Source of the DNA: Mesorhizobium sp. ZC-5
GTDB taxonomy: Bacteria > Pseudomonadota > Alphaproteobacteria > Rhizobiales > Rhizobiaceae
Assembly: GCF_025753855.1 (NCBI RefSeq)
Contig: NZ_JAOWPT010000008.1
Location: 169,589-233,588, forward strand
Length of the DNA stretch: 64,000 nucleotides
Reading direction: 5' to 3'
The position numbers were made by a program, and so were the translations under genes. How positions within the stretch are numbered: the first letter of the stretch is position 1; each line of letters opens with the position of its first letter. Shown piece after piece: positions 54,573 to 64,000 of this stretch. The notes beneath the pieces are model-generated. The model was not told the DNA's origin. It ran no database searches and was given only the letters and a program-made list of their open reading frames with translations.

Positions 54573-55613
54573 TCAGGTGAGACCGAGCCGCACGAGGTGG
54601 CGCACGACCGGCGTGAACAACTCCGAGCCGACATAGGAGCCAACGCCGGCATGTTCGAAGAGTGATTCGACCAGTTCGGCATCCTCGACCACCGGAATGC
54701 CGAGCCGCCGCGCTTCGGCGAGCATCGTGTCGGCGACATGGCCCTGGCCCTTGCCGACGATCACCGGCACGGGGGTATCGTCGCGGACGTAGCGCAACGC
54801 GACCATGCGGTCTCCCGCGGCGAAAACGAGGACGGCGTTCTTCACGCCGAGCCGGATCGGCCGCGTCACCGCTTCGCGGCGCTGGCGCTGAAATTCCTGC
54901 TGGATCAACGGGTCGCCTTCGAGATCCTTGAATTCGCGCCTGTATTCGGTCTTGGTCATGCGCATGTCGCGCAGAAACAGCCAGCGCTGCAGCGGAACGT
55001 CGATCAGTCCGATCAGAATGAAACCCAGCACGGCCGCGATGCCCAGCGGCGTCAGCACCGCCTTGATCATCGGCGCGATGCAGGTTTCGCCGCAGCCGGG
55101 CGCGTCGAAAAGCGGCTGCATCCAAGCCAGAAGGATGACGACGAACAGGCCGGCCAGGAAAACCACCTTCGCCACCCCCTTGGCGAACTCGACGACGTTT
55201 CGCAGCGAGATGATTTTCATGAGCCCCTTGGCGGGATTTATGTGATCGAACTGCGGCTTGATCGGCTCGAAGGAAAAGACCGGTCCGTAACTCGCAACGA
55301 AGCCGAAGAGCACCGTGAAGACGACAACGATGCCAACCAGAGGGGCTGTGACCAGAAACATCAGAGAGACGGTATGACGAATTGCACGCATGCTGATTTC
55401 GTCGAACGAGGCGCCTGAAGCCGTAACCGTCTGCATCAGCTGGGAAAGGTGTTCCGAGACGGTCGGCCAGATGAAATACAGGTAGGCAAGTGCCGCAAAA
55501 AGCGTGAAACCGGCAATCAGGTCGCGGCTTTGCGAGACCTGTCCTTTGCGTCGCGAATCGCGCAGCTTCTTGTCGGAAGCGGGTAACTGTTTTTCTTCGG
55601 CTTCCTGCGTCAT
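54573..55613 (-). CDS. sctU: Type III secretion export switch SctU, no NPTH motif
   Basis: The 346-residue FlhB/SctU-family protein has four hydrophobic helices (about residues 32-50, 80-110, 146-166 and 184-206), a linker with TKTEYRREFKDLEGDPLIQQE and a cytoplasmic domain. In the family, a conserved Asn-Pro-Thr-His undergoes self-cleavage to switch substrates. Aligning ...NAVLVFA / MVALRYV with the usual strand on each side puts Ala266-Gly267-Asp268-Arg269 at that place, so the motif is absent. The rest of the domain, VIVGKGQGHVADTMLAEARR and IPVVEDAELVESLF, is well kept. Flagellar FlhB is unlikely given the sctD-X-Y-V genes nearby. It is divergent from the TadD-like gene. Confidence 0.88.
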   Translation of the reverse strand: MTQEAEEKQLPASDKKLRDSRRKGQVSQSRDLIAGFTLFAALAYLYFIWPTVSEHLSQLMQTVTASGASFDEISMRAIRHTVSLMFLVTAPLVGIVVVFTVLFGFVASYGPVFSFEPIKPQFDHINPAKGLMKIISLRNVVEFAKGVAKVVFLAGLFVVILLAWMQPLFDAPGCGETCIAPMIKAVLTPLGIAAVLGFILIGLIDVPLQRWLFLRDMRMTKTEYRREFKDLEGDPLIQQEFQRQRREAVTRPIRLGVKNAVLVFAAGDRMVALRYVRDDTPVPVIVGKGQGHVADTMLAEARRLGIPVVEDAELVESLFEHAGVGSYVGSELFTPVVRHLVRLGLT

Positions 55614-55696
55614 TTCTGTATCTTAGCGCAAGCTTGTGGTTCCAGTGAGCGCCGCCATGTGTATGATGCGGCGGGCTTGAATACGGAGAGGTGGAT

Positions 55697-56506
55697 ATGC
55701 GGCTGCGTATCTTGTTCTTGCCTGCGGTTGCAGTTCTGGCGCTTTCCGGCTGCCAGACGGCGAAATCCAAGGCCGACGCCAAGGCCGCGGAAACGCAGGC
55801 GGCGTCGACGCAGTCGGACAGGCTGATGAAGCTTGCGGCCGACATCGAAGCCCGTGGCGAATCGGAGACCGCGATCGCGCTCTACCAGAAGGCAACGGCA
55901 ATGCCGGATGCGAAGCCGACGGCATTCGTGAAAGCCGGCGAGGCTTACATGCGCGCCGGCTATTCCACCGAGGCGGTCCAGGCCTACCGGGCGGCGTTGT
56001 CCAAGGCTCCGAACGACGGCTCTGCCATGCTCGGCCTGGGTTCCGCGATGATCGAAACCGGCGACGTCGAGGCAGGTATCCGCGCATTGTCGCAGGCGGC
56101 GCCGATCGTCAACACGAGCCGCGCCTACAACCGGCTGGGCGTCGCGCAGACCTTTGCCGGCCAGGTCGACCAAGCGCAGGTCACTTTCGGCCAGGCACTC
56201 AGACTGGAGCCGGGCGATCTCGACATCCAGACCAACATGGCGCTGGCCGCCGCCCTGGGGGGCAATGCCGCCGCCGCCATTCCGCTCGTCCAGAAAGTCG
56301 AGGCAGCTCCCGGCGCGCAACTGCACCACAAGCGCAACGTCGTGGTCGTCTACGGCCTGCTTGGCCAGGCCGATCACATCAAGGCATCGCCGCCGACAGG
56401 CCTGTCGACCAAGGAGATCAACACGCTGCTGGCCCGTGCCAAATCGATCCGCGCCAAGGGCAGCACGCAGGCAAAGGCGAAGGCGCTCGGTTCGATCGTC
56501 GGCTGA
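55697..56506 (+). CDS. TadD-like TPR lipoprotein
   Basis: The 269-residue lipoprotein has a lipobox LALSGC (Cys18, type II signal peptide) and about five TPR-like helical repeats (RGESETAIALYQKATAMP, GYSTEAVQAYRAALSKAP, GQVDQAQVTFGQALRLEPGD). It resembles TadD, the TPR lipoprotein of Tad pili that helps place the secretin. GAGAGG precedes the ATG at 55697. It lies on the opposite strand between sctU and the CpaD/CpaC-like genes. A role as pilotin-like helper for the nearby secretin is inferred. Confidence 0.78.
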   Translation: MRLRILFLPAVAVLALSGCQTAKSKADAKAAETQAASTQSDRLMKLAADIEARGESETAIALYQKATAMPDAKPTAFVKAGEAYMRAGYSTEAVQAYRAALSKAPNDGSAMLGLGSAMIETGDVEAGIRALSQAAPIVNTSRAYNRLGVAQTFAGQVDQAQVTFGQALRLEPGDLDIQTNMALAAALGGNAAAAIPLVQKVEAAPGAQLHHKRNVVVVYGLLGQADHIKASPPTGLSTKEINTLLARAKSIRAKGSTQAKAKALGSIVG

Positions 56507-56563
56507 CTTCCGACCGGGAAAGTCGCCGCGACGAACCAGGCAGCCGGGCAGCGGGAACATCCG

Positions 56564-57025
56564 TCAGTTGGTTGCAGGTTGCGTCGTCGACGTGTCGTCC
56601 GCACCCTCGTTGGCGCCGCCTATCGGCGCTTCATCGCCGTAGAGGTAGCGCCGCGCCGCCCTTGCAGTCGGAGCCCCGGCGGCCGGCCCCATTTGCCGTC
56701 CTTCAACCAGATCGCGCTGGCTCTCGGCCATGCGCTGGAGGTTGTAGGCATTGGCGCAACCGGGCGGCAGATGGGTGCCCACTCCGGAGACGATCGTGAG
56801 ACCGGTCGAGGCCGCCGAAAGATCGTCGTCGGCCGGTTCCGCAAGGCAGGCGTTGGGCGCCAGAACGCTACCGCCGACACTCTTTTCGGAGCCGGATGAA
56901 TTGGTGGCGACATAGCTGTAGCCCGGCGAATAGTCCTGGGGCTCCGGCTTTTCGTTGTTCGCACAGCCGACAAGCATGGCGAGCGGAAGGGCGAGCGCAG
57001 CACGGAAAACAATGGGAAAGGTCAT
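56564..57025 (-). CDS. CpaD-like lipoprotein
   Basis: This 153-residue lipoprotein has lipobox MLVGC (Cys21). The C-terminal half carries the CpaD-type signature HLPPGCANAYNLQRMAESQR DL (split here), then a basic ARAARRYLYGDEAP. CpaD is the outer-membrane lipoprotein partner of the Tad/Cpa secretin. The N-terminal part is short and low in complexity compared with true CpaD (about 200-240 residues). It follows the secretin gene by 13 bases, with GGAGG before its ATG, so the pair is likely cotranslated. Confidence 0.75.
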   Translation of the reverse strand: MTFPIVFRAALALPLAMLVGCANNEKPEPQDYSPGYSYVATNSSGSEKSVGGSVLAPNACLAEPADDDLSAASTGLTIVSGVGTHLPPGCANAYNLQRMAESQRDLVEGRQMGPAAGAPTARAARRYLYGDEAPIGGANEGADDTSTTQPATN

Positions 57026-57038
57026 TTGTCGTCCTCCG

Positions 57039-58400
57039 CTACTTGATGATCAGGCCCATCGCCGATGGGTCCTTCGAATGTTTCCGGGTGGCGCGCTTGC
57101 CGGCGGGACGGTCGGTGGGCGCCGCGAGGCTGTCCCGCACCGGTTCGACCAGATAGGGGGTGATCAGGATGACCAGCTCGGTCTCCTCCTTCTGGAAACG
57201 CTGCGACTGGAACAGCGCTCCGAGCACTGGAACGTCCCCCAGCACGGGGAATTTCTCGAGGTTCCGGGTGAAATTCTGCTGGAACAGACCGGCGATCGCG
57301 AAGGTCTGCCCGCTGCCCACTTCGACAATGGTATCGGCCTTGCGGACGACGAAGCTCGGCAGGTTGAAACCGTTGGCGCTGACGGTGGCCCCGCTCTGCG
57401 CTATGGAGCTGACCTCGGGCCTGACGTGGAGGCCGATGCGATTGCGTCCGATCAGGGTCGGCGTGAAGGTGAGGGAAACGCCGAACGGCTTGTATTCCAC
57501 CGTCGTGGTATCCTGGCTCTGCGGAATCGGAACCGGGATTTCGCCGCCAGCGAGGAAACTCGCGGTCTGGCCGGTCACCGCGGTCAGGTTGGGTTCCGCC
57601 AGGATCTTGACGATGCCGTTGCGCTGCAGCGCCTCGATGACGACTTCGAAATTGAGCCCGTTGCCGCCGCCGCCGATTCCCAGATTCCCTTCCCCCGGAG
57701 AGGGGACACCGTTGTCGCCGAACATGCTGAACTCGAAGCCGCTCGATTCGTAGCTCGCCGCCCAGTCCACTCCGTACGACTGCAGCTCGGTCCGCGACAC
57801 CTCTGCGAAGCGCACGCGGATGTTGACCTGCTGCGATCCCTGCACCGTCGTGTTGTTGATCGGCGGCTGTTCCGGCGGTGAATAGGTCCGCGCGACATTG
57901 TCGACATCGACCGCTTCCTCGACGCTCTGCGCGTCACCGGTCGCCACGATGCGGTTTCCGAAGATCGACAGATCGGTTGACGTCGTCGGCTGCAACGAAC
58001 GCTTGGCCTGGTTCGCGGGGGCGGCGTCCGGCGTAACACTGAATTGCGCCGTCGCCTCGATCCTTTGGTCGGTGGTGATGGCAATCAGGTTCGTGATGCC
58101 GGGTTTCAGGCCGAAGACATAGACGATGTCCGGCGACACCACCTGGATATCGGCGATCGTGGTATCCGCCACGAGAACCGACTCGACCGGCTCGTTGAAC
58201 CGCAGGATACGGCCCTGACCGACCGGCAGTTCGATCGTGGGCCTGCTTGGCAGGGGCGACACTTCCTGTGCCCGCAAGCCTGCGATCATGCCGAAAAGCG
58301 CTACAAAAAACAAAAACGCCGCGATAGCCCACGAGCGATGGATCAGCCGCCCTCCGCCGGCGGCCGGTCGAACGCTTGTTGCGATATCGTGGATTGTCAT
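57039..58400 (-). CDS. CpaC/RcpA-like secretin of the T3SS cluster
   Basis: This 453-residue outer-membrane secretin has a signal/hydrophobic segment (about residues 24-45, cleaved near RAQ-EV). An N-terminal pilus-formation domain follows (IELPVGQGRILRFNEPVESV, about 55-75), then a BON-like strand region and the secretin domain (about 240-440) with EVGSGQTFAIAGLF and FPVLGDVPVLGALFQSQRFQ. This is the Tad/Cpa secretin type, not the SctC/YscC type with extra N1 domains and a pilotin tail. It lies 53 bases after sctV in the same operon. It probably serves as the outer ring of the T3SS here. Confidence 0.85.
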   Translation of the reverse strand: MTIHDIATSVRPAAGGGRLIHRSWAIAAFLFFVALFGMIAGLRAQEVSPLPSRPTIELPVGQGRILRFNEPVESVLVADTTIADIQVVSPDIVYVFGLKPGITNLIAITTDQRIEATAQFSVTPDAAPANQAKRSLQPTTSTDLSIFGNRIVATGDAQSVEEAVDVDNVARTYSPPEQPPINNTTVQGSQQVNIRVRFAEVSRTELQSYGVDWAASYESSGFEFSMFGDNGVPSPGEGNLGIGGGGNGLNFEVVIEALQRNGIVKILAEPNLTAVTGQTASFLAGGEIPVPIPQSQDTTTVEYKPFGVSLTFTPTLIGRNRIGLHVRPEVSSIAQSGATVSANGFNLPSFVVRKADTIVEVGSGQTFAIAGLFQQNFTRNLEKFPVLGDVPVLGALFQSQRFQKEETELVILITPYLVEPVRDSLAAPTDRPAGKRATRKHSKDPSAMGLIIK

Positions 58401-58453
58401 ACTGTCCCTCTCTCGCCCATTTTATGTCTTCCCCACCTAGCCGCTTGACGGCG

Positions 58454-60610
58454 TCAAGAAGCGGCCTCTTGTCCTGTTGCCGCCCGTCCCGTGGGCAGCG
58501 ATCGCGAAGCCGGCCGCGCCCCCTGCCGGGCAGCGATCGTCGCCAGCGGCTGCACGTTGAATTCGGGAGCGAGCTCCTGATAGGAAAGCACCGGCAACTC
58601 GATGCCGCTGTGCACCAGCAGACTGCGCATGTGCCGGCGCACATCCATCGCGGCCAGCACTACCGGCAGGACGCCCGCCGAGGTTTCCGACAGAGCCTTC
58701 TGGATCTGCGCCACCAGTGACTGTGCCTCGTCGTCGGACAGGTTCACGAACGAGCCCGAGGAGGTTTCCTGGACCGCGGCTCTCAATATCTCTTCAGCCG
58801 ACCGTTGCAGAACATAGGCGGCGATGATGTTGTTGCGGTCGGCCGCGCGAAAGCTGATCTGGCGCTTCAGGGCGGTGCGTACGTATTCGGTGAGAAGCAC
58901 TACATCCTGCTCGCGCTGGCCCCATTCGATGAGCGCTTCCAGCACAAGCCGCAGGTTGCGGATAGGCACGTTTTCGGCGACCAGCCGACGAAGCACCTCG
59001 GCGATCTTCTGCAGCGGAACGGTTTCCTGCGCTTCCTTGACGAGGTCGGCATAGTCCGGCTCGATGTCCGACAGAAGCCGGCGTGTTTCCTGGATACCGA
59101 CGAAGTGGCCGGCATAAAGCCTGAGCGCGTGGGCGAGCCACTTGGCCGAGGTTTCGACGGGTGTGAAAAAGCTGACGCCCGCCTCCTGCAAGGCGCCGCT
59201 GTGGCGTGCTTCGGCCCATATCGTCCTGGTCTTGTGCCCGGCAACCGGCGGACCGTCTTCATGGGCGACACCGAGCAGATCGAGATGTGTTCCGTCCTCC
59301 TCGACCAGCACGCGGTCGGCTGGAATTTCCGCGTCCAGGATGGGCGCACCCTCAAGATCTATGCGCAGATGCCGGGGTGCCAGCGCCGGGTCGACATGCA
59401 GGCCGATCGCCGGCACATCGACGCCGAGGTCCCCGAACAGTTCGCGCCGGATACGCGTTGCCTGCTGGCTGAATTCAGGTTCGGGAATCGCCTGCCCGAG
59501 TTCGGGTCCGAGCCGGACGACGATCCGGGACGAGGATTGCGAGGCGTCGACTTCTCCGACCGAGGTCGCCGGCGAAACGGCGCGCTGTTCCGGGATCTCG
59601 ACAAGCCCTGTCGCCTCGCTTTTGTCGGCAGCCGCCGTGCGCCGGTGGATTGCGTAGGCACCCGCGCCGAAAGCTGCTCCGAGAACCAGAAACACGACAG
59701 TGGGGAAACCCGGCACCATGCCGAGGCCGATCATGATTACCGCGGCGAGACCCAGGGCGCGTGAATCGCGCAGAAGCTGCCCGGTGATCTGCCGGCCGAG
59801 GTCGCCGTCGCCATCGGCACTTGCCACCCGCGTCACCATCGTGCCCGAGGCGACGGCCACGAGAAGGGCAGGGATCTGCGCAACCAGCCCGTCGCCGACG
59901 GTGAGCAGGGAGTAGGTCGCAGCGGCCTCGCCCAGCGACATGCCGTGCTGCAGCGTGCCGATCGCAAATCCGCCGATCAGGTTGACGAGAATGATGACGA
60001 TGCCGGCGATGACGTCGCCCTTGACGAATTTCATGGCGCCGTCCATCGCGCCGAACAGCTGGCTTTCGCGCTCGAGCTGATGGCGCAGGCGGCGCGCTTC
60101 GGCCTGGTCGATGTCGCCGTTGCGCAGCTCCGCGTCGATGCTCATCTGCTTGCCGGGCAAGGCGTCCAGCGTGAAGCGCGCAGCCACTTCGGCGACGCGC
60201 TCGGCGCCTTTCGCCACCACGATGAACTGCGCGATGGTGATGATCAGGAAGACGACCATGCCGACGGCGATGCTGCCACCCACCACGAATGTGCCGAATG
60301 CGGTGACGACTTCGCCGGCGTCCGCCTGCAACAGGATCAATCGTGTCGTGGTGATGGTGATTGCCAGCCGGAATAGCGTGGCGACGAGAATGACCGACGG
60401 CAGCGACGAAAATTCCAGTGGGTGCGTGACGTAGAACGACACCAGCAGGATGAGCACGCTGATCGCGATGTTTGCGGTGATGAGGATGTCGACGAGGAAA
60501 GTCGGCAGCGGGATGAGCATCATCACCACCGCCGTCAGCATCAGGATAGCGATGACCAGGTCGCCGCGGTTCGAGAGTTTCGCAAGCAGCTGTGTCAGCC
60601 GGTCGATCAT
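58454..60610 (-). CDS. sctV: Type III secretion export gate SctV
   Basis: The 718-residue FlhA/SctV-family protein has eight hydrophobic helices in residues 1-310, then a large cytoplasmic domain that forms a nonameric ring. The FHIPEP-family signature lies around residues 125-170 (QFIVVAKGAERVAEVAARFT, LDALPGKQMSIDAELRNGDI). DIDQAEARRLRHQLERESQL follows. It selects and passes substrates for export. Two bases separate it from the sctY stop. Neighbouring sctD, sctX and sctY exclude a flagellar FlhA. Confidence 0.93.
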   Translation of the reverse strand: MIDRLTQLLAKLSNRGDLVIAILMLTAVVMMLIPLPTFLVDILITANIAISVLILLVSFYVTHPLEFSSLPSVILVATLFRLAITITTTRLILLQADAGEVVTAFGTFVVGGSIAVGMVVFLIITIAQFIVVAKGAERVAEVAARFTLDALPGKQMSIDAELRNGDIDQAEARRLRHQLERESQLFGAMDGAMKFVKGDVIAGIVIILVNLIGGFAIGTLQHGMSLGEAAATYSLLTVGDGLVAQIPALLVAVASGTMVTRVASADGDGDLGRQITGQLLRDSRALGLAAVIMIGLGMVPGFPTVVFLVLGAAFGAGAYAIHRRTAAADKSEATGLVEIPEQRAVSPATSVGEVDASQSSSRIVVRLGPELGQAIPEPEFSQQATRIRRELFGDLGVDVPAIGLHVDPALAPRHLRIDLEGAPILDAEIPADRVLVEEDGTHLDLLGVAHEDGPPVAGHKTRTIWAEARHSGALQEAGVSFFTPVETSAKWLAHALRLYAGHFVGIQETRRLLSDIEPDYADLVKEAQETVPLQKIAEVLRRLVAENVPIRNLRLVLEALIEWGQREQDVVLLTEYVRTALKRQISFRAADRNNIIAAYVLQRSAEEILRAAVQETSSGSFVNLSDDEAQSLVAQIQKALSETSAGVLPVVLAAMDVRRHMRSLLVHSGIELPVLSYQELAPEFNVQPLATIAARQGARPASRSLPTGRAATGQEAAS

Positions 60611-60612
60611 GG

Positions 60613-60945
60613 TCAGCCGTCATCCCGTTGCACGAGGAAGTCGCGGAATGCGTGCCGCGCTTCCGCCGTGCGGCCCGCAGCCAGCAGCGCCCGGCTCTTC
60701 AGAAGTGCAAGCGTTGGATGGTCCATTCCGTCCAGGGTCTCCAGTCGTGCGATGGTTGCGAGTGCCTTGTCCGCCTCGCCGTCGAGCGTCAGGACATGGG
60801 CGAGTGTTCGCAGGACGCCGGCGTTGCCGGGAGCAAGTTGCGCGGCGATAAGCAGATACGCGGCACCGCGCTTCACCTGCCCATGACACCCGTAGAGATA
60901 GCCGAGTACATGGAGCAGCTGCACCGTGTCGTGCGCATCGGTCAG
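60613..60945 (-). CDS. sctY: SctY-like TPR chaperone, probable CTG start
   Basis: The 110-residue TPR protein has helices VQLLHVLGYLYGCHGQVKRG, AAYLLIAAQLAPGNAGVLRT, VLTLDGEADKALATIARLET and a C-terminal SRALLAAGRTAEARHAFRDF. YscY/SctY proteins are TPR chaperones that bind SctX and the SctV ring. No ATG lies in frame. GTG at 60924 lacks a ribosome-binding site and drops the plausible first helix TDAHDTVQLL. A CTG at 60945 has GGGAGG nine bases upstream and overlaps the sctX stop as CTGA, like other junctions here. It sits between sctX and sctV, the yscX-yscY-lcrD order. Confidence 0.68.
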   Translation of the reverse strand: MTDAHDTVQLLHVLGYLYGCHGQVKRGAAYLLIAAQLAPGNAGVLRTLAHVLTLDGEADKALATIARLETLDGMDHPTLALLKSRALLAAGRTAEARHAFRDFLVQRDDG

Positions 60946-61382
60946 GTCTCGATACCTCCCTGCAACCGGCCGAGCAGTTCCCGATGGCGCTCTATCTCGT
61001 CCTGCATCAGCGTCCTGGCGAGGTTTTTGAGCTGCTCGCCGCCCTCAAGCTCCGGAACAAGATCGGTAACGCAATGCTGGAGGATGGAGGCGGATCGGCG
61101 CAGAATCGCGGGGTCCGGGATACGCGGCATGATGAAGTCGATGAGCGCATCGTCGAGAGATTTTCCGGTACTGCCCGACGGTGGTTGAAAATCGGTGGTT
61201 TCGGGGCGCTCGGAGCGCGCAGCCCCGTTCGCTTCCCGTGTGCGCGCGGCCGCCTTCTCGACATTGTTCAGCCGCCGCCTGTTGATCGTCTGGCCGCGCG
61301 CGCCGTCAGCCTGCTGCGCTTCGCGCCCCGATGTGTCCAGTCTTCCCGCGTCGAGTCCCGGCCCCTCCAGACGACGGTTCAT
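60942..61382 (-). CDS. sctX: SctX-like secretion component
   Basis: The 146-residue protein has a basic, disordered N-terminal half and a helical C-terminus (about residues 75-146) with SLDDALIDFIMPRIPDPAIL, then LARTLMQDEIERHRELLGRL. The ending resembles YscX, an early substrate that binds YscY and the SctV ring. Gene order sctD-sctX-sctY-sctV supports it strongly. The ATG overlaps the sctD stop by four bases, and the stop overlaps the sctY start. Sequence similarity is low, as is usual for this family. Confidence 0.68.
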   Translation of the reverse strand: MNRRLEGPGLDAGRLDTSGREAQQADGARGQTINRRRLNNVEKAAARTREANGAARSERPETTDFQPPSGSTGKSLDDALIDFIMPRIPDPAILRRSASILQHCVTDLVPELEGGEQLKNLARTLMQDEIERHRELLGRLQGGIET

Positions 61383-62401
61383 GGGTAGTTCAGAGCGACC
61401 GTCGAGCCGCCTTTCGTCAACAGAAGTTGCTTTTCGCCGATCTCTTTGATCGCCCAGCCATCGCTCACGAAGGCGCCCTCATAGTAGCGCGCGCCGTCGC
61501 TCGTGATGATGTATGGCCGCTGGCCGTACCAGATCGCCTGCAGCGGCAGCCGCGGCGCCTGCGCGACACCTCCGGCCACGACGTCGGAGACGAGCGGAAC
61601 ATGGCCGCCATAGGTCTGGTCGAACCACGACTGGATTCCGGTCCAGGCTTCATTCTGCTGTTCTGCGATCGTCCCGGAGACGGTCAGCCTGCCATGGCTT
61701 TCTTCCACGCCAAGCGTGCCGATTCCTGCCTCGGCGAGGCGAAGTTTGAGCTGCGCCCCGGCGTTGGCGATGCTCACCGGGCCTTGCGCGAGACCGGCCT
61801 CCTGCGTGGCATCGAGAAGCGAATATTGCTGAACTCCGTCGGCGAAGGCGAGCTTGGTCAGCTTCGCATCCCCGGCGCCTTGTTGCGCGGATGGATCGGA
61901 ACCGGCCAGCGACAAGCCATTGGCCGCAATGGATATGGCGAAGGCGACCGCGACCAGTCCGGCCGCCACCAGAATCGGCCGGCTGGGGGTATTCCGGCTG
62001 GGCAGCGATTGTTCGGGACCGGTCAAAAGGACCTGAGCTTCGCCGAAAACAACCTCCAGCGGCAGCTCGCAGCGGCGGCCATGGCCTTTCGGCACGATGT
62101 CGCCATTCGCCAGAACGATGTCGCCGCCGACCGCTTCAACCTCGACCTGCCCGCCTTTGCGGCGCAGGCGCGCATGGATGGGCGCGATGCCGGTATCTCT
62201 CAGGACGATGTCGGATTCGGTGCTCGAGCCGACCGTATAAAGCGGCTCGGCCAGGTCCAGAGTGGCGCCGGCATGCAGCCCGCGCGTGACCTGCAATGCG
62301 ACCTCGCGCCCAGCCGTCTTGCCGAGGATATCAGGAGCACTCAGCCGGAACGGACGCATGAGCGCCGTGTCCAACAATCTGTTGATCGATCCTGCGGACA
62401 T
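61379..62401 (-). CDS. sctD: Type III secretion inner-ring protein SctD
   Basis: The 340-residue protein has an N-terminal forkhead-associated-like domain (about residues 35-125: LQVTRGLHAGATLDLAEPLY, GSSTESDIVLRDTGIAPIHA). One transmembrane helix (about 145-163: ILVAAGLVAVAFAISIA) and a periplasmic part with BON-like folds (LAEAGIGTLGVEESHGRLTV) follow. This is the SctD/YscD layout, the outer part of the inner-membrane ring. GGAG lies just before the ATG. It begins the tightly overlapped sctD-X-Y run. Confidence 0.82.
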   Translation of the reverse strand: MSAGSINRLLDTALMRPFRLSAPDILGKTAGREVALQVTRGLHAGATLDLAEPLYTVGSSTESDIVLRDTGIAPIHARLRRKGGQVEVEAVGGDIVLANGDIVPKGHGRRCELPLEVVFGEAQVLLTGPEQSLPSRNTPSRPILVAAGLVAVAFAISIAANGLSLAGSDPSAQQGAGDAKLTKLAFADGVQQYSLLDATQEAGLAQGPVSIANAGAQLKLRLAEAGIGTLGVEESHGRLTVSGTIAEQQNEAWTGIQSWFDQTYGGHVPLVSDVVAGGVAQAPRLPLQAIWYGQRPYIITSDGARYYEGAFVSDGWAIKEIGEKQLLLTKGGSTVALNYP

Positions 62402-62471
62402 GCAACTCCACCTCCAGAAGGCAACGGCTCCCAGCCCGAATCAGAGCTGAACCGACCACTGCCGAAATGTT

Positions 62472-62500
62472 GCGCCGCCGGTGCATCTGTTCGGCGGCGC
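62472..62500. terminator. Strong stem-loop between the 58-residue gene and sctD
   Basis: GCGCCGCCG and CGGCGGCGC are perfect 9-base arms around an 11-base loop. It lies 23 bases after the stop of the small upstream gene and 71 before sctD on the transcribed strand. Without a clear T-run it may act as an attenuator or stabiliser, leaving more message for the small protein than for sctD. Confidence 0.6.
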
Positions 62501-62522
62501 GCAGATTTTGGGATCGCGGCCG

Positions 62523-62699
62523 TTAAGCCTTCTCGGCGGATTGGCCGAGCGTCCTTGCAGTGCTCATCATCATGTCGTGCTCGGACTTCGCGATCTCTTT
62601 CTTGATCTCCAGGGAGAACATGCGCTCCTGGTGTTTGATCATCTTGTCCAGATTCTGCTCTGGGCTTCCTCCGGTTGTCGGGGGTACGGGACCAGCCAT
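62523..62699 (-). CDS. 58-residue helical protein beside sctD, unknown
   Basis: This small protein starts MAGPVPPTTGGSPEQNLDKM and is followed by a long Met- and Lys-rich helix (IKHQERMFSLEIKKEIAKSE, then HDMMMSTARTLGQSAEKA). GGAGAG lies just before the ATG; an upstream extension to 62846 is not supported. Size and a flexible start plus single helix are the build of T3SS needle or inner-rod proteins (SctF, SctI), but no family signature is certain. The hairpin downstream would favour higher expression than sctD, as expected for a needle or rod subunit. Treat function as unknown. Confidence 0.6.
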   Translation of the reverse strand: MAGPVPPTTGGSPEQNLDKMIKHQERMFSLEIKKEIAKSEHDMMMSTARTLGQSAEKA

Positions 62700-62794: not shown

Positions 62795-62824
62795 AAATGG
62801 AAGTCCATTTGGAATGCGGTTCCA
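62795..62824. promoter_or_regulatory. Paired palindromes in the T3SS / rpiR control region
   Basis: AAATGGA-AG-TCCATTT (62795-62810) is a perfect 7-base-arm inverted repeat, directly followed by TGGAATGCGGTTCCA (62810-62824), a second with 5-base arms. They lie between the 58-residue gene and the divergent RpiR-family gene. RpiR proteins often bind GGAA/TTCC-type inverted repeats, so these are candidate operators. Confidence 0.5.
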
Positions 62825-62897
62825 GCCAAAGTTCCAACTGTTGCATTCTGAGGAAGTCGGGAGTAGGTTGAAGGGGGGTGAATGGGGTAAGATTGAC

Positions 62898-63773
62898 ATG
62901 GAAAAAGGTCCGTTGGCGGAACTACTGGTCGAACGGTATGAGACGATGCCGCCGCAGCTCAGGGTAGCTGCCCGGTTTGTGCTCGATCATCCACAGGATG
63001 TCGCTCTGATGTCGATGCGTGAGCAGGCGCATCAGGCGGGAGTTTCGCACAGCACGATGATGCGCCTCGCGCGATGGCTCGGCCTCGATGGCTATGAGGA
63101 CATGCGCAGTCTCTACGCCAAGGCGATGCGCCAGCCGGGCAGTCTGTCCGGCACGTCCGCGCGCTTCCTGGAGACGCAGCCTGCCGGCGACGGCGGCTTC
63201 TCGACGGTGGGCGTCGTTGCCGACATGCTTGCCGCCCAAATCGCCAGCCTCGGCGAGTACAGCAACGCCACCCAGTTTATCGCCGCGGCGGATGTTCTCG
63301 CGGGCTCACGCACGTTATTCAGCCTCGGCCTGCGGTCGGAACAGGCTGTCGCGCAGCATTTCGCGCACACGCTTTCTTTCCTGGGCCGCGAGGTGAGACT
63401 CCTGGATGCTTCCGGCGCCATGGGTATCGATGCCTTGCGCGGTGCCGGCGACGGCGATGCAGTGCTGGCGATAAGTCTGGCGCCTTACTCCCGGGCGACG
63501 ATCGAAGTGGCGCGCCAGGCGGCGGAACGCCGGGTAGCGATCGTGGCCATCACGGACAGCAGCGTGTCGCCGCTGGCCAGGATGGCGCGCGAAAGCATCA
63601 TCGTCACCACGGGCTCGCAGTCATATTTCAGGAGCATGGCGCCGGCTCTCGCCGCAACCGAAATACTGGCTGCGCTGATCGCCGCCAAATCCGGCGCGAA
63701 CGCCGAAGGCAAGGCGAGGGAGGTCGAGGAAGAACTCGCCGCCCTTGATGTTTATTGGAAGCCGCCCCGGTAA
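62898..63773 (+). CDS. MurR/RpiR-family transcriptional regulator
   Basis: The 291-residue regulator has an N-terminal RpiR helix-turn-helix (about residues 1-75: PLAELLVERYETMPPQLRVA, REQAHQAGVSHSTMMRLARW) and a C-terminal SIS sugar-phosphate domain (TLFSLGLRSEQAVAQHFAHT, AVLAISLAPYSRATIEVARQ). The family usually senses phosphosugars. The ATG at 62898 places the HTH normally; upstream in-frame starts run into the palindromes. It is divergent from the sctD-side genes, suggesting metabolic control of secretion, though its target is not proven. Confidence 0.88.
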   Translation: MEKGPLAELLVERYETMPPQLRVAARFVLDHPQDVALMSMREQAHQAGVSHSTMMRLARWLGLDGYEDMRSLYAKAMRQPGSLSGTSARFLETQPAGDGGFSTVGVVADMLAAQIASLGEYSNATQFIAAADVLAGSRTLFSLGLRSEQAVAQHFAHTLSFLGREVRLLDASGAMGIDALRGAGDGDAVLAISLAPYSRATIEVARQAAERRVAIVAITDSSVSPLARMARESIIVTTGSQSYFRSMAPALAATEILAALIAAKSGANAEGKAREVEEELAALDVYWKPPR

Positions 63774-63858: not shown

Positions 63859-64000
63859 ATGATCCGCCCGATTACCACTCTCAAGCCCCCGCCGCCTCCC
63901 AAGGTCGATCCCAAGGCGAATGCCGAGCAGATCACGCGGCTGCAGGCCGAAGCCACGAAATTGCGCAATGAGATCCGGCTCGCCAACAAGATGGGCGAGT
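63859..64000 (+). CDS. Start of a proline-rich, coiled-coil protein (3' cut)
   Basis: From ATG 63859 the frame is open to the window end. GGAGG lies five bases upstream. The 47 visible residues begin MIRPITTLKPPPPPKVDPKA and continue as a heptad-like helix AEQITRLQAEATKLRNEIRL. No signal peptide is visible. It follows the rpiR-type gene by 85 bases. Position beside T3SS genes suggests a secreted or structural part of the system, but this is a guess. Confidence 0.6.
   Translation, partial: MIRPITTLKPPPPPKVDPKANAEQITRLQAEATKLRNEIRLANKMGE

What the first reader, a model, noticed from the sequence alone, without database searches (positions are those of the whole stretch)
54573..62699. Type III secretion system built with a Tad-pilus-type outer membrane module
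Seen: sctD, sctX, sctY, sctV and sctU lie among a CpaC-type secretin, a CpaD-like lipoprotein and a TadD-like TPR lipoprotein. Secretin, CpaD-like and sctV genes are closely spaced on one strand. No SctC-type secretin and no Tad ATPase, platform or pilin gene is in view. Known: secretins are shared among T3SS, T2SS and Tad systems, and TadD/CpaD assist Tad secretins. Inference: this T3SS took over a whole Tad outer-membrane module, including helper lipoproteins, rather than only the secretin. Three Tad-like parts in one T3SS locus make this the best candidate here for a little-described system.
Basis: partly seen in the sequence, partly recalled or inferred. Interest (0 to 1): 0.85.

Follow-up and report, generated by a model that had tools for sequence, protein, structure and literature searches.

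The report
Injection machine with borrowed pilus gate
A soil bacterium carries, beside its symbiosis-type protein-injection machine, a second one whose outer-membrane gate and two small lipoproteins that probably help build it come from a sticky-pilus system; such hybrids were already known in rhizobia, but here one helper was found in each of 25 related genomes that have the gate, and the likely contact between the two looks re-tuned.

Summary
Window 54573-62699 carries SctU, a TPR lipoprotein, a CpaD-like lipoprotein, a CpaC/RcpA-type secretin, SctV, SctY, an SctX-like protein, SctD and a 58-aa ORF. It is the right arm of a T3SS; the left arm, with RhcC1 (the N-terminal SctC remnant), is on contig C11. 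The genome also has an Rhc-I T3SS (C14/C22).

The kind is known: Tad origin of RhcC2 (PMC3459982), and a TadD-like pilotin candidate and CpaD-like neighbour in Rhc-I (PMC4311626), are in print. The window's clade is sister to Rhc-II.

The CpaD-like protein keeps only CpaD's C-terminus. The secretin keeps the tip that in Tad binds TadD, but here ends in Lys in 18 of 18 loci, against acid in 23 of 24 Rhc-I/II and 76 of 95 Tad or untyped loci. One versus two recruitments is unresolved (AU p 0.067-0.178).

The parts
54573..55613 (-). sctU, export switch protein (346 aa)
   Evidence: TIGR01404 E 1.6e-75 (under cut-off), PF01312 E 1.1e-74
55691..56506 (+). TadD-like TPR lipoprotein (271 aa, Cys21 invariant), proposed pilotin; opposite strand to its neighbours
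   Evidence: TPR models; hhalign to Tad TadD alignment prob 100, E 2.9e-40 over 266 columns; AlphaFold model pLDDT 88.4; same 25 of 395 genomes as the secretin
56564..57025 (-). CpaD-like lipoprotein (153 aa, Cys21 invariant), C-terminal part of CpaD only
   Evidence: PF09476 E 1.9e-4, under cut-off, profile 159-198 of 200; hhalign to Tad CpaD prob 97.8, E 1.1e-12 over 53 columns
57039..58400 (-). RhcC2/CpaC/RcpA-type secretin (453 aa)
   Evidence: PF00263 E 7.7e-43 and PF13629 E 1.5e-17; best solved relative is Tad RcpA 8odn E 5.5e-67, best entry named GspD/protein D E 1e-24; trees
57042..57056 (-). last five codons of the secretin, GLIIK: proposed pilotin-binding tip with Lys at the end
   Evidence: Lys end in 18 of 18 loci of this clade; the last four residues of Tad RcpA are needed to bind TadD (PMC10499894)
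58454..60610 (-). sctV, export gate (718 aa)
   Evidence: TIGR01399 832.5 bits, over cut-off
60613..60924 (-). sctY, TPR chaperone (103 aa)
   Evidence: NF052415 E 2.1e-14, under cut-off
60942..61382 (-). sctX-like protein (146 aa)
   Evidence: position, and profile built from ORFs in the same position of relatives, 52 bits; no Pfam or NCBIfam match
61379..62401 (-). sctD, inner ring with FHA domain (340 aa)
   Evidence: TIGR02500 E 7.3e-19 (under cut-off); PF23893 Y4YQ_C E 5.5e-23; PF21934 E 1.7e-15
62523..62699 (-). 58-aa ORF in front of sctD, possible needle subunit (inference from position only)
   Evidence: alike in L059 and L060, looser in L061, L065, L067; other small ORFs in L147, L148, L069; no Pfam match

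Best explanation
This is the outer-membrane and export-gate arm of a second Rhc-family T3SS whose other arm (SctT-S-R-Q-N-L-K-J, RhcC1) lies on another contig. Shown from sequence: the secretin, the CpaD-like and the TadD-like lipoproteins are relatives of Tad outer-membrane parts and are found with this T3SS. Inferred mechanism: (1) the lipidated TadD-like TPR protein binds the C-terminal tip of the secretin and brings it to the outer membrane so that it assembles there, as TadD does for RcpA; (2) the shortened CpaD-like lipoprotein sits round the secretin barrel, having lost the N-terminal part of CpaD; (3) RhcC1, the N-terminal remnant of the old SctC, links the Tad-type ring to SctD/SctJ (a link proposed by Abby and Rocha for Rhc systems); (4) the SctRSTUV gate and SctN ATPase export substrates through the joined channel. 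In this clade the contact of step 1 looks re-tuned: the terminal acid usual in Tad and Rhc-I/II tails is Lys.
For: Gene content and families. Two sets of SctR, J, V and U in the genome, set A on C14/C22 and set B on C11/C8; the C11 arm is nearest to loci of the window's clade (best seven rows, some of them the same genome twice: SctN 75-78%, SctR 81-84%) and far from the own C14 set (54%, 55%). Relatives with both arms together and the order D-X-Y-V-secretin-cpaD-TPR-sctU. TPR relatives on plasmids: 24 of 24 records also hold an SctV, at most 14.6 kb away; CpaD-like: 19 of 19. Same 25 of 395 genomes for secretin and TPR, including four where the TPR gene lies elsewhere. Homology to CpaD and TadD by profile. 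RhcC1 matches only SctC profile positions 2-158 of 463. Tail tally and the RcpA-TadD structure paper. A y4yS mutant of M. loti has less RhcC2 in membranes.
Confidence: 0.78

Rival explanations
1. Only the secretin works for the T3SS; the CpaD-like and TPR genes are hitch-hikers or do another job, for example as T3SS chaperones.
For: Gazi 2012 discussed TPR proteins of Rhc-II next to chaperones and regulators, and reports one P. syringae cluster without the TPR gene; CpaO is dispensable in Caulobacter; in four genomes of the clade the TPR gene is not beside the secretin.
Against: Invariant N-terminal Cys of lipoprotein type in both alignments; TadD homology over the full length; presence in the same 25 of 395 genomes; CpaD-like gene next to the secretin in the 44 T3SS loci counted (with hand check); y4yS mutant phenotype in M. 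loti.
Confidence: 0.13
2. The window locus is a relic of a dead T3SS (split over two contigs, TPR gene turned round).
For: Arms are not adjacent in this draft genome; little is known of Rhc-II function.
Against: Each listed gene is a full-length ORF; TPR turned round also in L061, L065, L076-L083, L147, L148; no left-arm gene in the fetched stretch (about 10 kb a side, less at contig ends) of 8 of the 17 other loci of the clade; the C11 arm holds SctT, R, Q and J over their cut-offs.
Confidence: 0.07
3. Two separate recruitments: Rhc-I and Rhc-II/window lineages each took a Tad outer-membrane module.
For: In three secretin trees Rhc-I RhcC2 sits with Tad L144 (support 96/76, 96/81, 92/64) apart from the Rhc-II/window clade; free tree better by 15.8, 20.0 and 9.95 log units. 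Rhc-I CpaD matches the full profile while the window's matches only its end.
Against: The AU test does not reject one clade (p 0.135, 0.067, 0.178); the trees carry long-branch warnings, and the three sets share many rows.
Confidence: 0.45

Closest known systems
Rhc-II (alpha-Rhc II) T3SS: S. fredii NGR234 pNGR234b, and by SctV tree S. meliloti LMB1 pB and E. adhaerens NER9 pD
   Same: Same right-arm order D-X-Y-V-secretin-cpaD-TPR-sctU; RhcC1 in the other arm; SctV and secretin clades are sisters.
   Different: Window clade is separate (100/100, 13 rows); secretin ends in Lys not acid; arms on two contigs here; the small protein before sctD, sctX, sctF and sctI score low or not at all with the Rhc-II profiles.
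Rhc-I T3SS of M. loti / NGR234 (RhcC2, y4xK/mlr8762, y4yS)
   Same: Tad-type RhcC2 with CpaD-like neighbour, TadD-like TPR lipoprotein, RhcC1.
   Different: Genes in separate regions; CpaD-like part full length; secretin groups elsewhere among Tad secretins; tail acid.
Tad pilus outer-membrane complex (RcpA-TadD; CpaC-CpaD)
   Same: Homologous secretin, TadD and CpaD C-terminus, secretin tail.
   Different: No CpaF, TadB, TadC, CpaB, CpaE or Flp in the window by profile; T3SS export gate instead.
M. alhagi T3SS1
   Same: Rhc-II system beside an Rhc-I system in one Mesorhizobium genome.
   Different: Its secretin and helpers do not occur in the passages seen; its place in the window's clade was not tested.

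Membership tests
Non-flagellar T3SS | SctR, S, T, U, V, J, N, Q present and of T3SS type | tested here: met
   SctV over and SctU under its cut-off in the window; on C11 SctT, SctR, SctQ, SctJ over T3SS cut-offs and SctN 603 bits (cut-off 657; over TIGR01026); SctS by profile only
Rhc T3SS family | Split secretin: RhcC1 N-terminal remnant plus Tad-type RhcC2 | tested here: met
   C11 ORF matches SctC profile 2-158 of 463 and PF21304 N0 E 5.5e-5, under cut-off; secretin 57039-58400
Rhc T3SS family | SctD of Y4yQ type | tested here: met
   PF23893 E 5.5e-23
Rhc-II subgroup | Core proteins inside the clade of pNGR234b | tested here: inconclusive
   SctV clade is sister to, not inside, the 19 Rhc-II rows; the join has support 89/83 in an unrooted tree with long-branch warnings
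Rhc-I subgroup | Core proteins inside the clade of pNGR234a | tested here: not met
   SctV tree; own Rhc-I set is on C14/C22
Tad pilus system | CpaF ATPase, TadB/TadC platform, Flp pilin in the locus | tested here: not met
   None in the window by profile; own Tad-like loci are on C2, C4, C5 with their own secretins
TadD pilotins | TPR lipoprotein homologous to TadD over its length | tested here: met
   hhalign prob 100, E 2.9e-40, 266 columns; no comparison with an unrelated TPR family was run as a control
TadD pilotins | Binds the secretin C-terminus and is needed for its assembly | not testable with these tools
   Tail conserved; needs biochemistry
CpaD | N-terminal periplasmic (OmpA-like) domain plus C-terminus | tested here: not met
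   Only the C-terminal 40-53 columns match

The most novel reading that the evidence does not exclude
T3SSs recruited a Tad outer-membrane set (secretin, CpaD, TadD) on two occasions, once in Rhc-I and once in the ancestor of Rhc-II and the window's lineage. In the window's lineage the secretin-pilotin address was then rewritten (terminal acid to Lys, CpaD cut to its C-terminal end), giving a dedicated pair kept apart from the other Tad-type secretins of the same cell.
Probability: 0.28. Interest if true: 0.58.

Novelty: new variant of a known kind. Interest (0 to 1): 0.42.

Why it matters
How a machine changes its outer-membrane gate is an open question, because a new secretin needs its own targeting factor and a fit to the inner rings. 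Rhc systems are natural cases in which the gate came with relatives of its helpers and kept a stub of the old gate, perhaps as an adaptor. The TadD tip contact is solved for Tad, so the tail and groove in this T3SS can be tested directly. It also bears on the printed remark that Rhc subgroup II has no y4yS-type gene (PMC4500985): all 19 Rhc-II loci examined here have a TadD-like gene.

Tried and rejected
Inverted TPR gene as a trace of the Tad locus: dropped. TPR orientation relative to the secretin is opposite/same/not found in 21/18/8 of 47 T3SS loci and 21/27/33 of 81 Tad loci (within 11 kb and over 60 bits), so it is not diagnostic (47 includes 6 loci fetched twice under two ids, L149-L154).

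Charge change in the TPR groove to match the Lys tail: column comparison gave several candidate positions but no safe mapping on P. aeruginosa TadD, whose sequence is not in the rows that the PDB searches listed; not claimed. TadD of 8odn is not among the fold-search rows listed.

One-origin test of T3SS secretins: not rejected in three sets. Rows left out of the second set: L016, L088, L091, L093, L127. The third set (56 rows) was picked by hand from the T3SS and Tad loci held. The C12 secretin fell under the entry limit of the first tree; it is GspD (TIGR02517 470.8 bits, over cut-off). My label Rhc-III for L087 (R. etli Mim1) was a guess; its SctV groups with Rhc-I.

Rfam scan at gathering threshold: nothing. 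The SctX-like and 58-aa ORFs match no Pfam family.

Full report
What is there. The ORFs listed under parts are full length. Families: SctU, SctV, SctY and SctD by T3SS models, of these only SctV over its NCBIfam cut-off; a secretin with PF00263 and PF13629; a TPR lipoprotein; a lipoprotein with a weak CpaD match confined to the C-terminus. The contig ends at window base 64000, so no gene can be followed to the right. The window is contig C8:169589-233588 of a 6.34 Mb genome in 68 contigs. The nearest secretins in named genomes are 79-80% identical and from Mesorhizobium sp. MAGs, so Mesorhizobium or a near relative is an inference.

The rest of the machine. Each of PF00813 (SctR/FliP), PF01514 (SctJ/FliF), PF00771 (SctV/FlhA) and PF01312 (SctU/FlhB) matches twice in the genome. 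Set A is on C14 (rhcC2, CpaD-like, U, T, S, R, Q, N, L, K, J, rhcC1) beside NifA, NifV and a FixC-like oxidoreductase, and on C22 (rhcV, a TPR lipoprotein, sctY- and sctD-like). Its SctV groups with NGR234a, so it is an Rhc-I system. Set B is C11 (T, S, R, Q, N, L, K, J, RhcC1, then an L,D-transpeptidase; S, L and K by profile only) plus the window. The C11 arm is closest to loci of the window's clade: SctN 75-78% and SctR 81-84% in the best seven rows (some genomes appear there twice), against 54% and 55% to the own C14 set. So set B is complete in core genes but split. No flagellar FlhA or FlhB was found in these searches. The six PF00263 matches of the genome are the two T3SS secretins (C8, C14), three beside CpaF, TadB and TadC (C2, C4, C5) and a GspD on C12; there is no full SctC among them.

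Relatives. E. adhaerens NER9 pD, Phyllobacterium zundukense and Phyllobacterium T1293 plasmids and S. meliloti LMB1 pB have both arms side by side; R. johnstonii pRlX5 has them in one direction. In each of these five the order is sctD, sctX, sctY, sctV, secretin, CpaD-like, TPR, sctU (X, Y, CpaD-like and some others are my reading of 'hypothetical' or 'type III secretion protein' rows, by position and profile). The TPR gene is turned round, as in the window, in R. johnstonii and Phyllobacterium T1293. In the SctV tree of 38 rows the window stands in a clade of 13 (100/100), sister to 19 rows holding pNGR234b (98/96 for the 19; the join of the two groups 89/83), away from Rhc-I; the tree is unrooted and warns of long branches (Paracoccus, Halomonas). 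The clade is thus not confined to nodule bacteria (their life style is recalled).

Tad origin of the secretin. The best solved relative of the secretin profile is Tad RcpA (8odn, E 5.5e-67), then 8jvb (E 1.6e-48, named only 'type II and III secretion system protein'); the best entry named secretion protein D is at E 1e-24. In trees of 65, 60 and 56 rows the Rhc-II and window secretins fall together with T3SS loci only (the 60-row tree then joins them to Tad L141, with a long-branch warning), and Rhc-I RhcC2 lies elsewhere, next to Tad L144. The trees are unrooted. The AU test for one T3SS clade gave p 0.135, 0.067 and 0.178, so two recruitments are favoured by likelihood but not shown.

The helpers belong to the T3SS. 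(a) tblastn on 72,556 plasmids: the TPR protein has relatives in 24 records (E up to 1e-5); all 24 are among the 60 listed records with an SctV, 14.6 kb away at most by the listed coordinates; the CpaD-like protein has 19 (E up to 0.01), all 19 likewise. (b) In 395 genomes of the family the secretin (E up to 1e-90) is found in 25 and the TPR protein (E up to 1e-12) in 25, and the two lists of handles are identical. The limits were set by me before each search, and the tool scored only the best 4 or 6 first-look candidates of a genome, so misses are possible. Four of these genomes lack the TPR gene in the stretch fetched round the secretin but have it 13-19 kb away (G255, G086, G221) or on another contig (G070). 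Against this, Gazi 2012 reports a P. syringae pv. oryzae Rhc-II cluster without the TPR gene. (c) A CpaD-like gene directly follows the secretin in 18 of 18 window-clade, 19 of 19 Rhc-II, 5 of 5 Rhc-I and 2 of 2 other T3SS loci. The script's strict rule counted 18, 13, 4 and 2; the remaining 7 have it there too, with longest-ORF starts overlapping the secretin by more than the rule allowed, as its printed coordinates show.

The tip. In P. aeruginosa the last four residues of RcpA are needed to bind TadD, and Arg79 of TadD holds the terminal Asp416 (PMC10499894, section 11). Tails: window clade 18 of 18 end in Lys (GLIVK 7, GLIIK 6, GMIVK 4, GLIFK 1); Rhc-II 18 of 19 in Asp or Glu (the other is a Gln in the broken Halomonas gene); Rhc-I 5 of 5 in Glu; other T3SS 1 acid and 1 Arg; 95 other loci, Tad or not typed and a few with broken frames, 76 acid, 5 basic. 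The own Tad locus on C2 also ends in Lys, which speaks against Lys being a private mark. That the tail is kept at all, including in the four genomes where the TPR gene has moved away, fits a continued pilotin contact. The charge change is an observation; its meaning is inference.

What was known. Abby and Rocha 2012 (PMC3459982, passages): RhcC2 from Tad, RhcC1 as remnant and possible linker to SctD; TadD occurs once, in the reference list. Mercante 2015 (PMC4311626, passages): Y4yS is TadD-like, its loss lowers RhcC2 in membranes, and mlr8762 is CpaD-like. [quoted passage not shown] Gazi 2012 (PMC3574062, passages): an opposite-facing TPR gene between hrcIIC1 and hrcIIC2 in two P. syringae T3SS-2 clusters and none in a third, TPR proteins compared with chaperones and regulators. 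Tampakaki 2014 (PMC3973906, passages): subgroups, and a GR4 Rhc-II system split by about 30 kb. Liu 2018 (PMC5826200, abstract and passages): M. alhagi has Rhc-II T3SS1 and Rhc-I T3SS2; T3SS1 is salt-induced and its rhcQ mutant is salt-sensitive. The listings of searches (15, 61 and 100 showed 20 of 26, 54 and 35 papers) hold no paper that by its title or abstract start names the Rhc-II TPR protein as a TadD pilotin or describes the secretin tail; most papers were not opened, and subscription papers and bioRxiv are not covered.

Verdict. The parts that look new are the close co-occurrence of the TadD-like gene with the secretin in Rhc-II-type systems, the cut-down CpaD, and the conserved but charge-changed tip.

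Noticed in passing
L018:15436-18966 (C11, beside the set B left arm): ORF of 1176 aa ending close to the end of the fetched stretch, with ALTTAQ repeats (PF20080 E 1.2e-15) and a bacterial SH3 domain (PF08239 E 8.1e-11); no NCBIfam match. A possible T3SS substrate by position only.
   Followed up: partly
window 62814-63773 and L030:7068-8165 (C22): Both T3SS sets have a MurR/RpiR-type regulator (window one) beside the sctD side (window) or the rhcV-TPR end (C22); the two look alike by eye.
   Followed up: no
whole genome G000: PF00813, PF01514, PF00771 and PF01312 each match only the two T3SS sets, so no flagellar export gate was found in this draft genome.
   Followed up: no
L018:13667-14434 (C11); also L027, L083-L085: An L,D-transpeptidase (YkuD, PF03734 E 1.6e-22) accompanies these T3SS loci, beside rhcC1 here and behind sctU in Rhc-II; possibly a wall-remodelling partner.
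   Followed up: no
L127 (G749:C2): A T3SS outside the family with RhcC1, an RhcC2-type secretin ending GFIID and a nearly full-length CpaD-like protein, branching next to the Rhc-II/window secretin clade: a possible intermediate.
   Followed up: partly
H81-H83, H112-H114 (Klebsiella plasmids, listing only) and L091 (Halomonas plasmid): SctV relatives with a TadD-like TPR gene at most 14.6 kb away also occur on plasmids of gammaproteobacteria.
   Followed up: no
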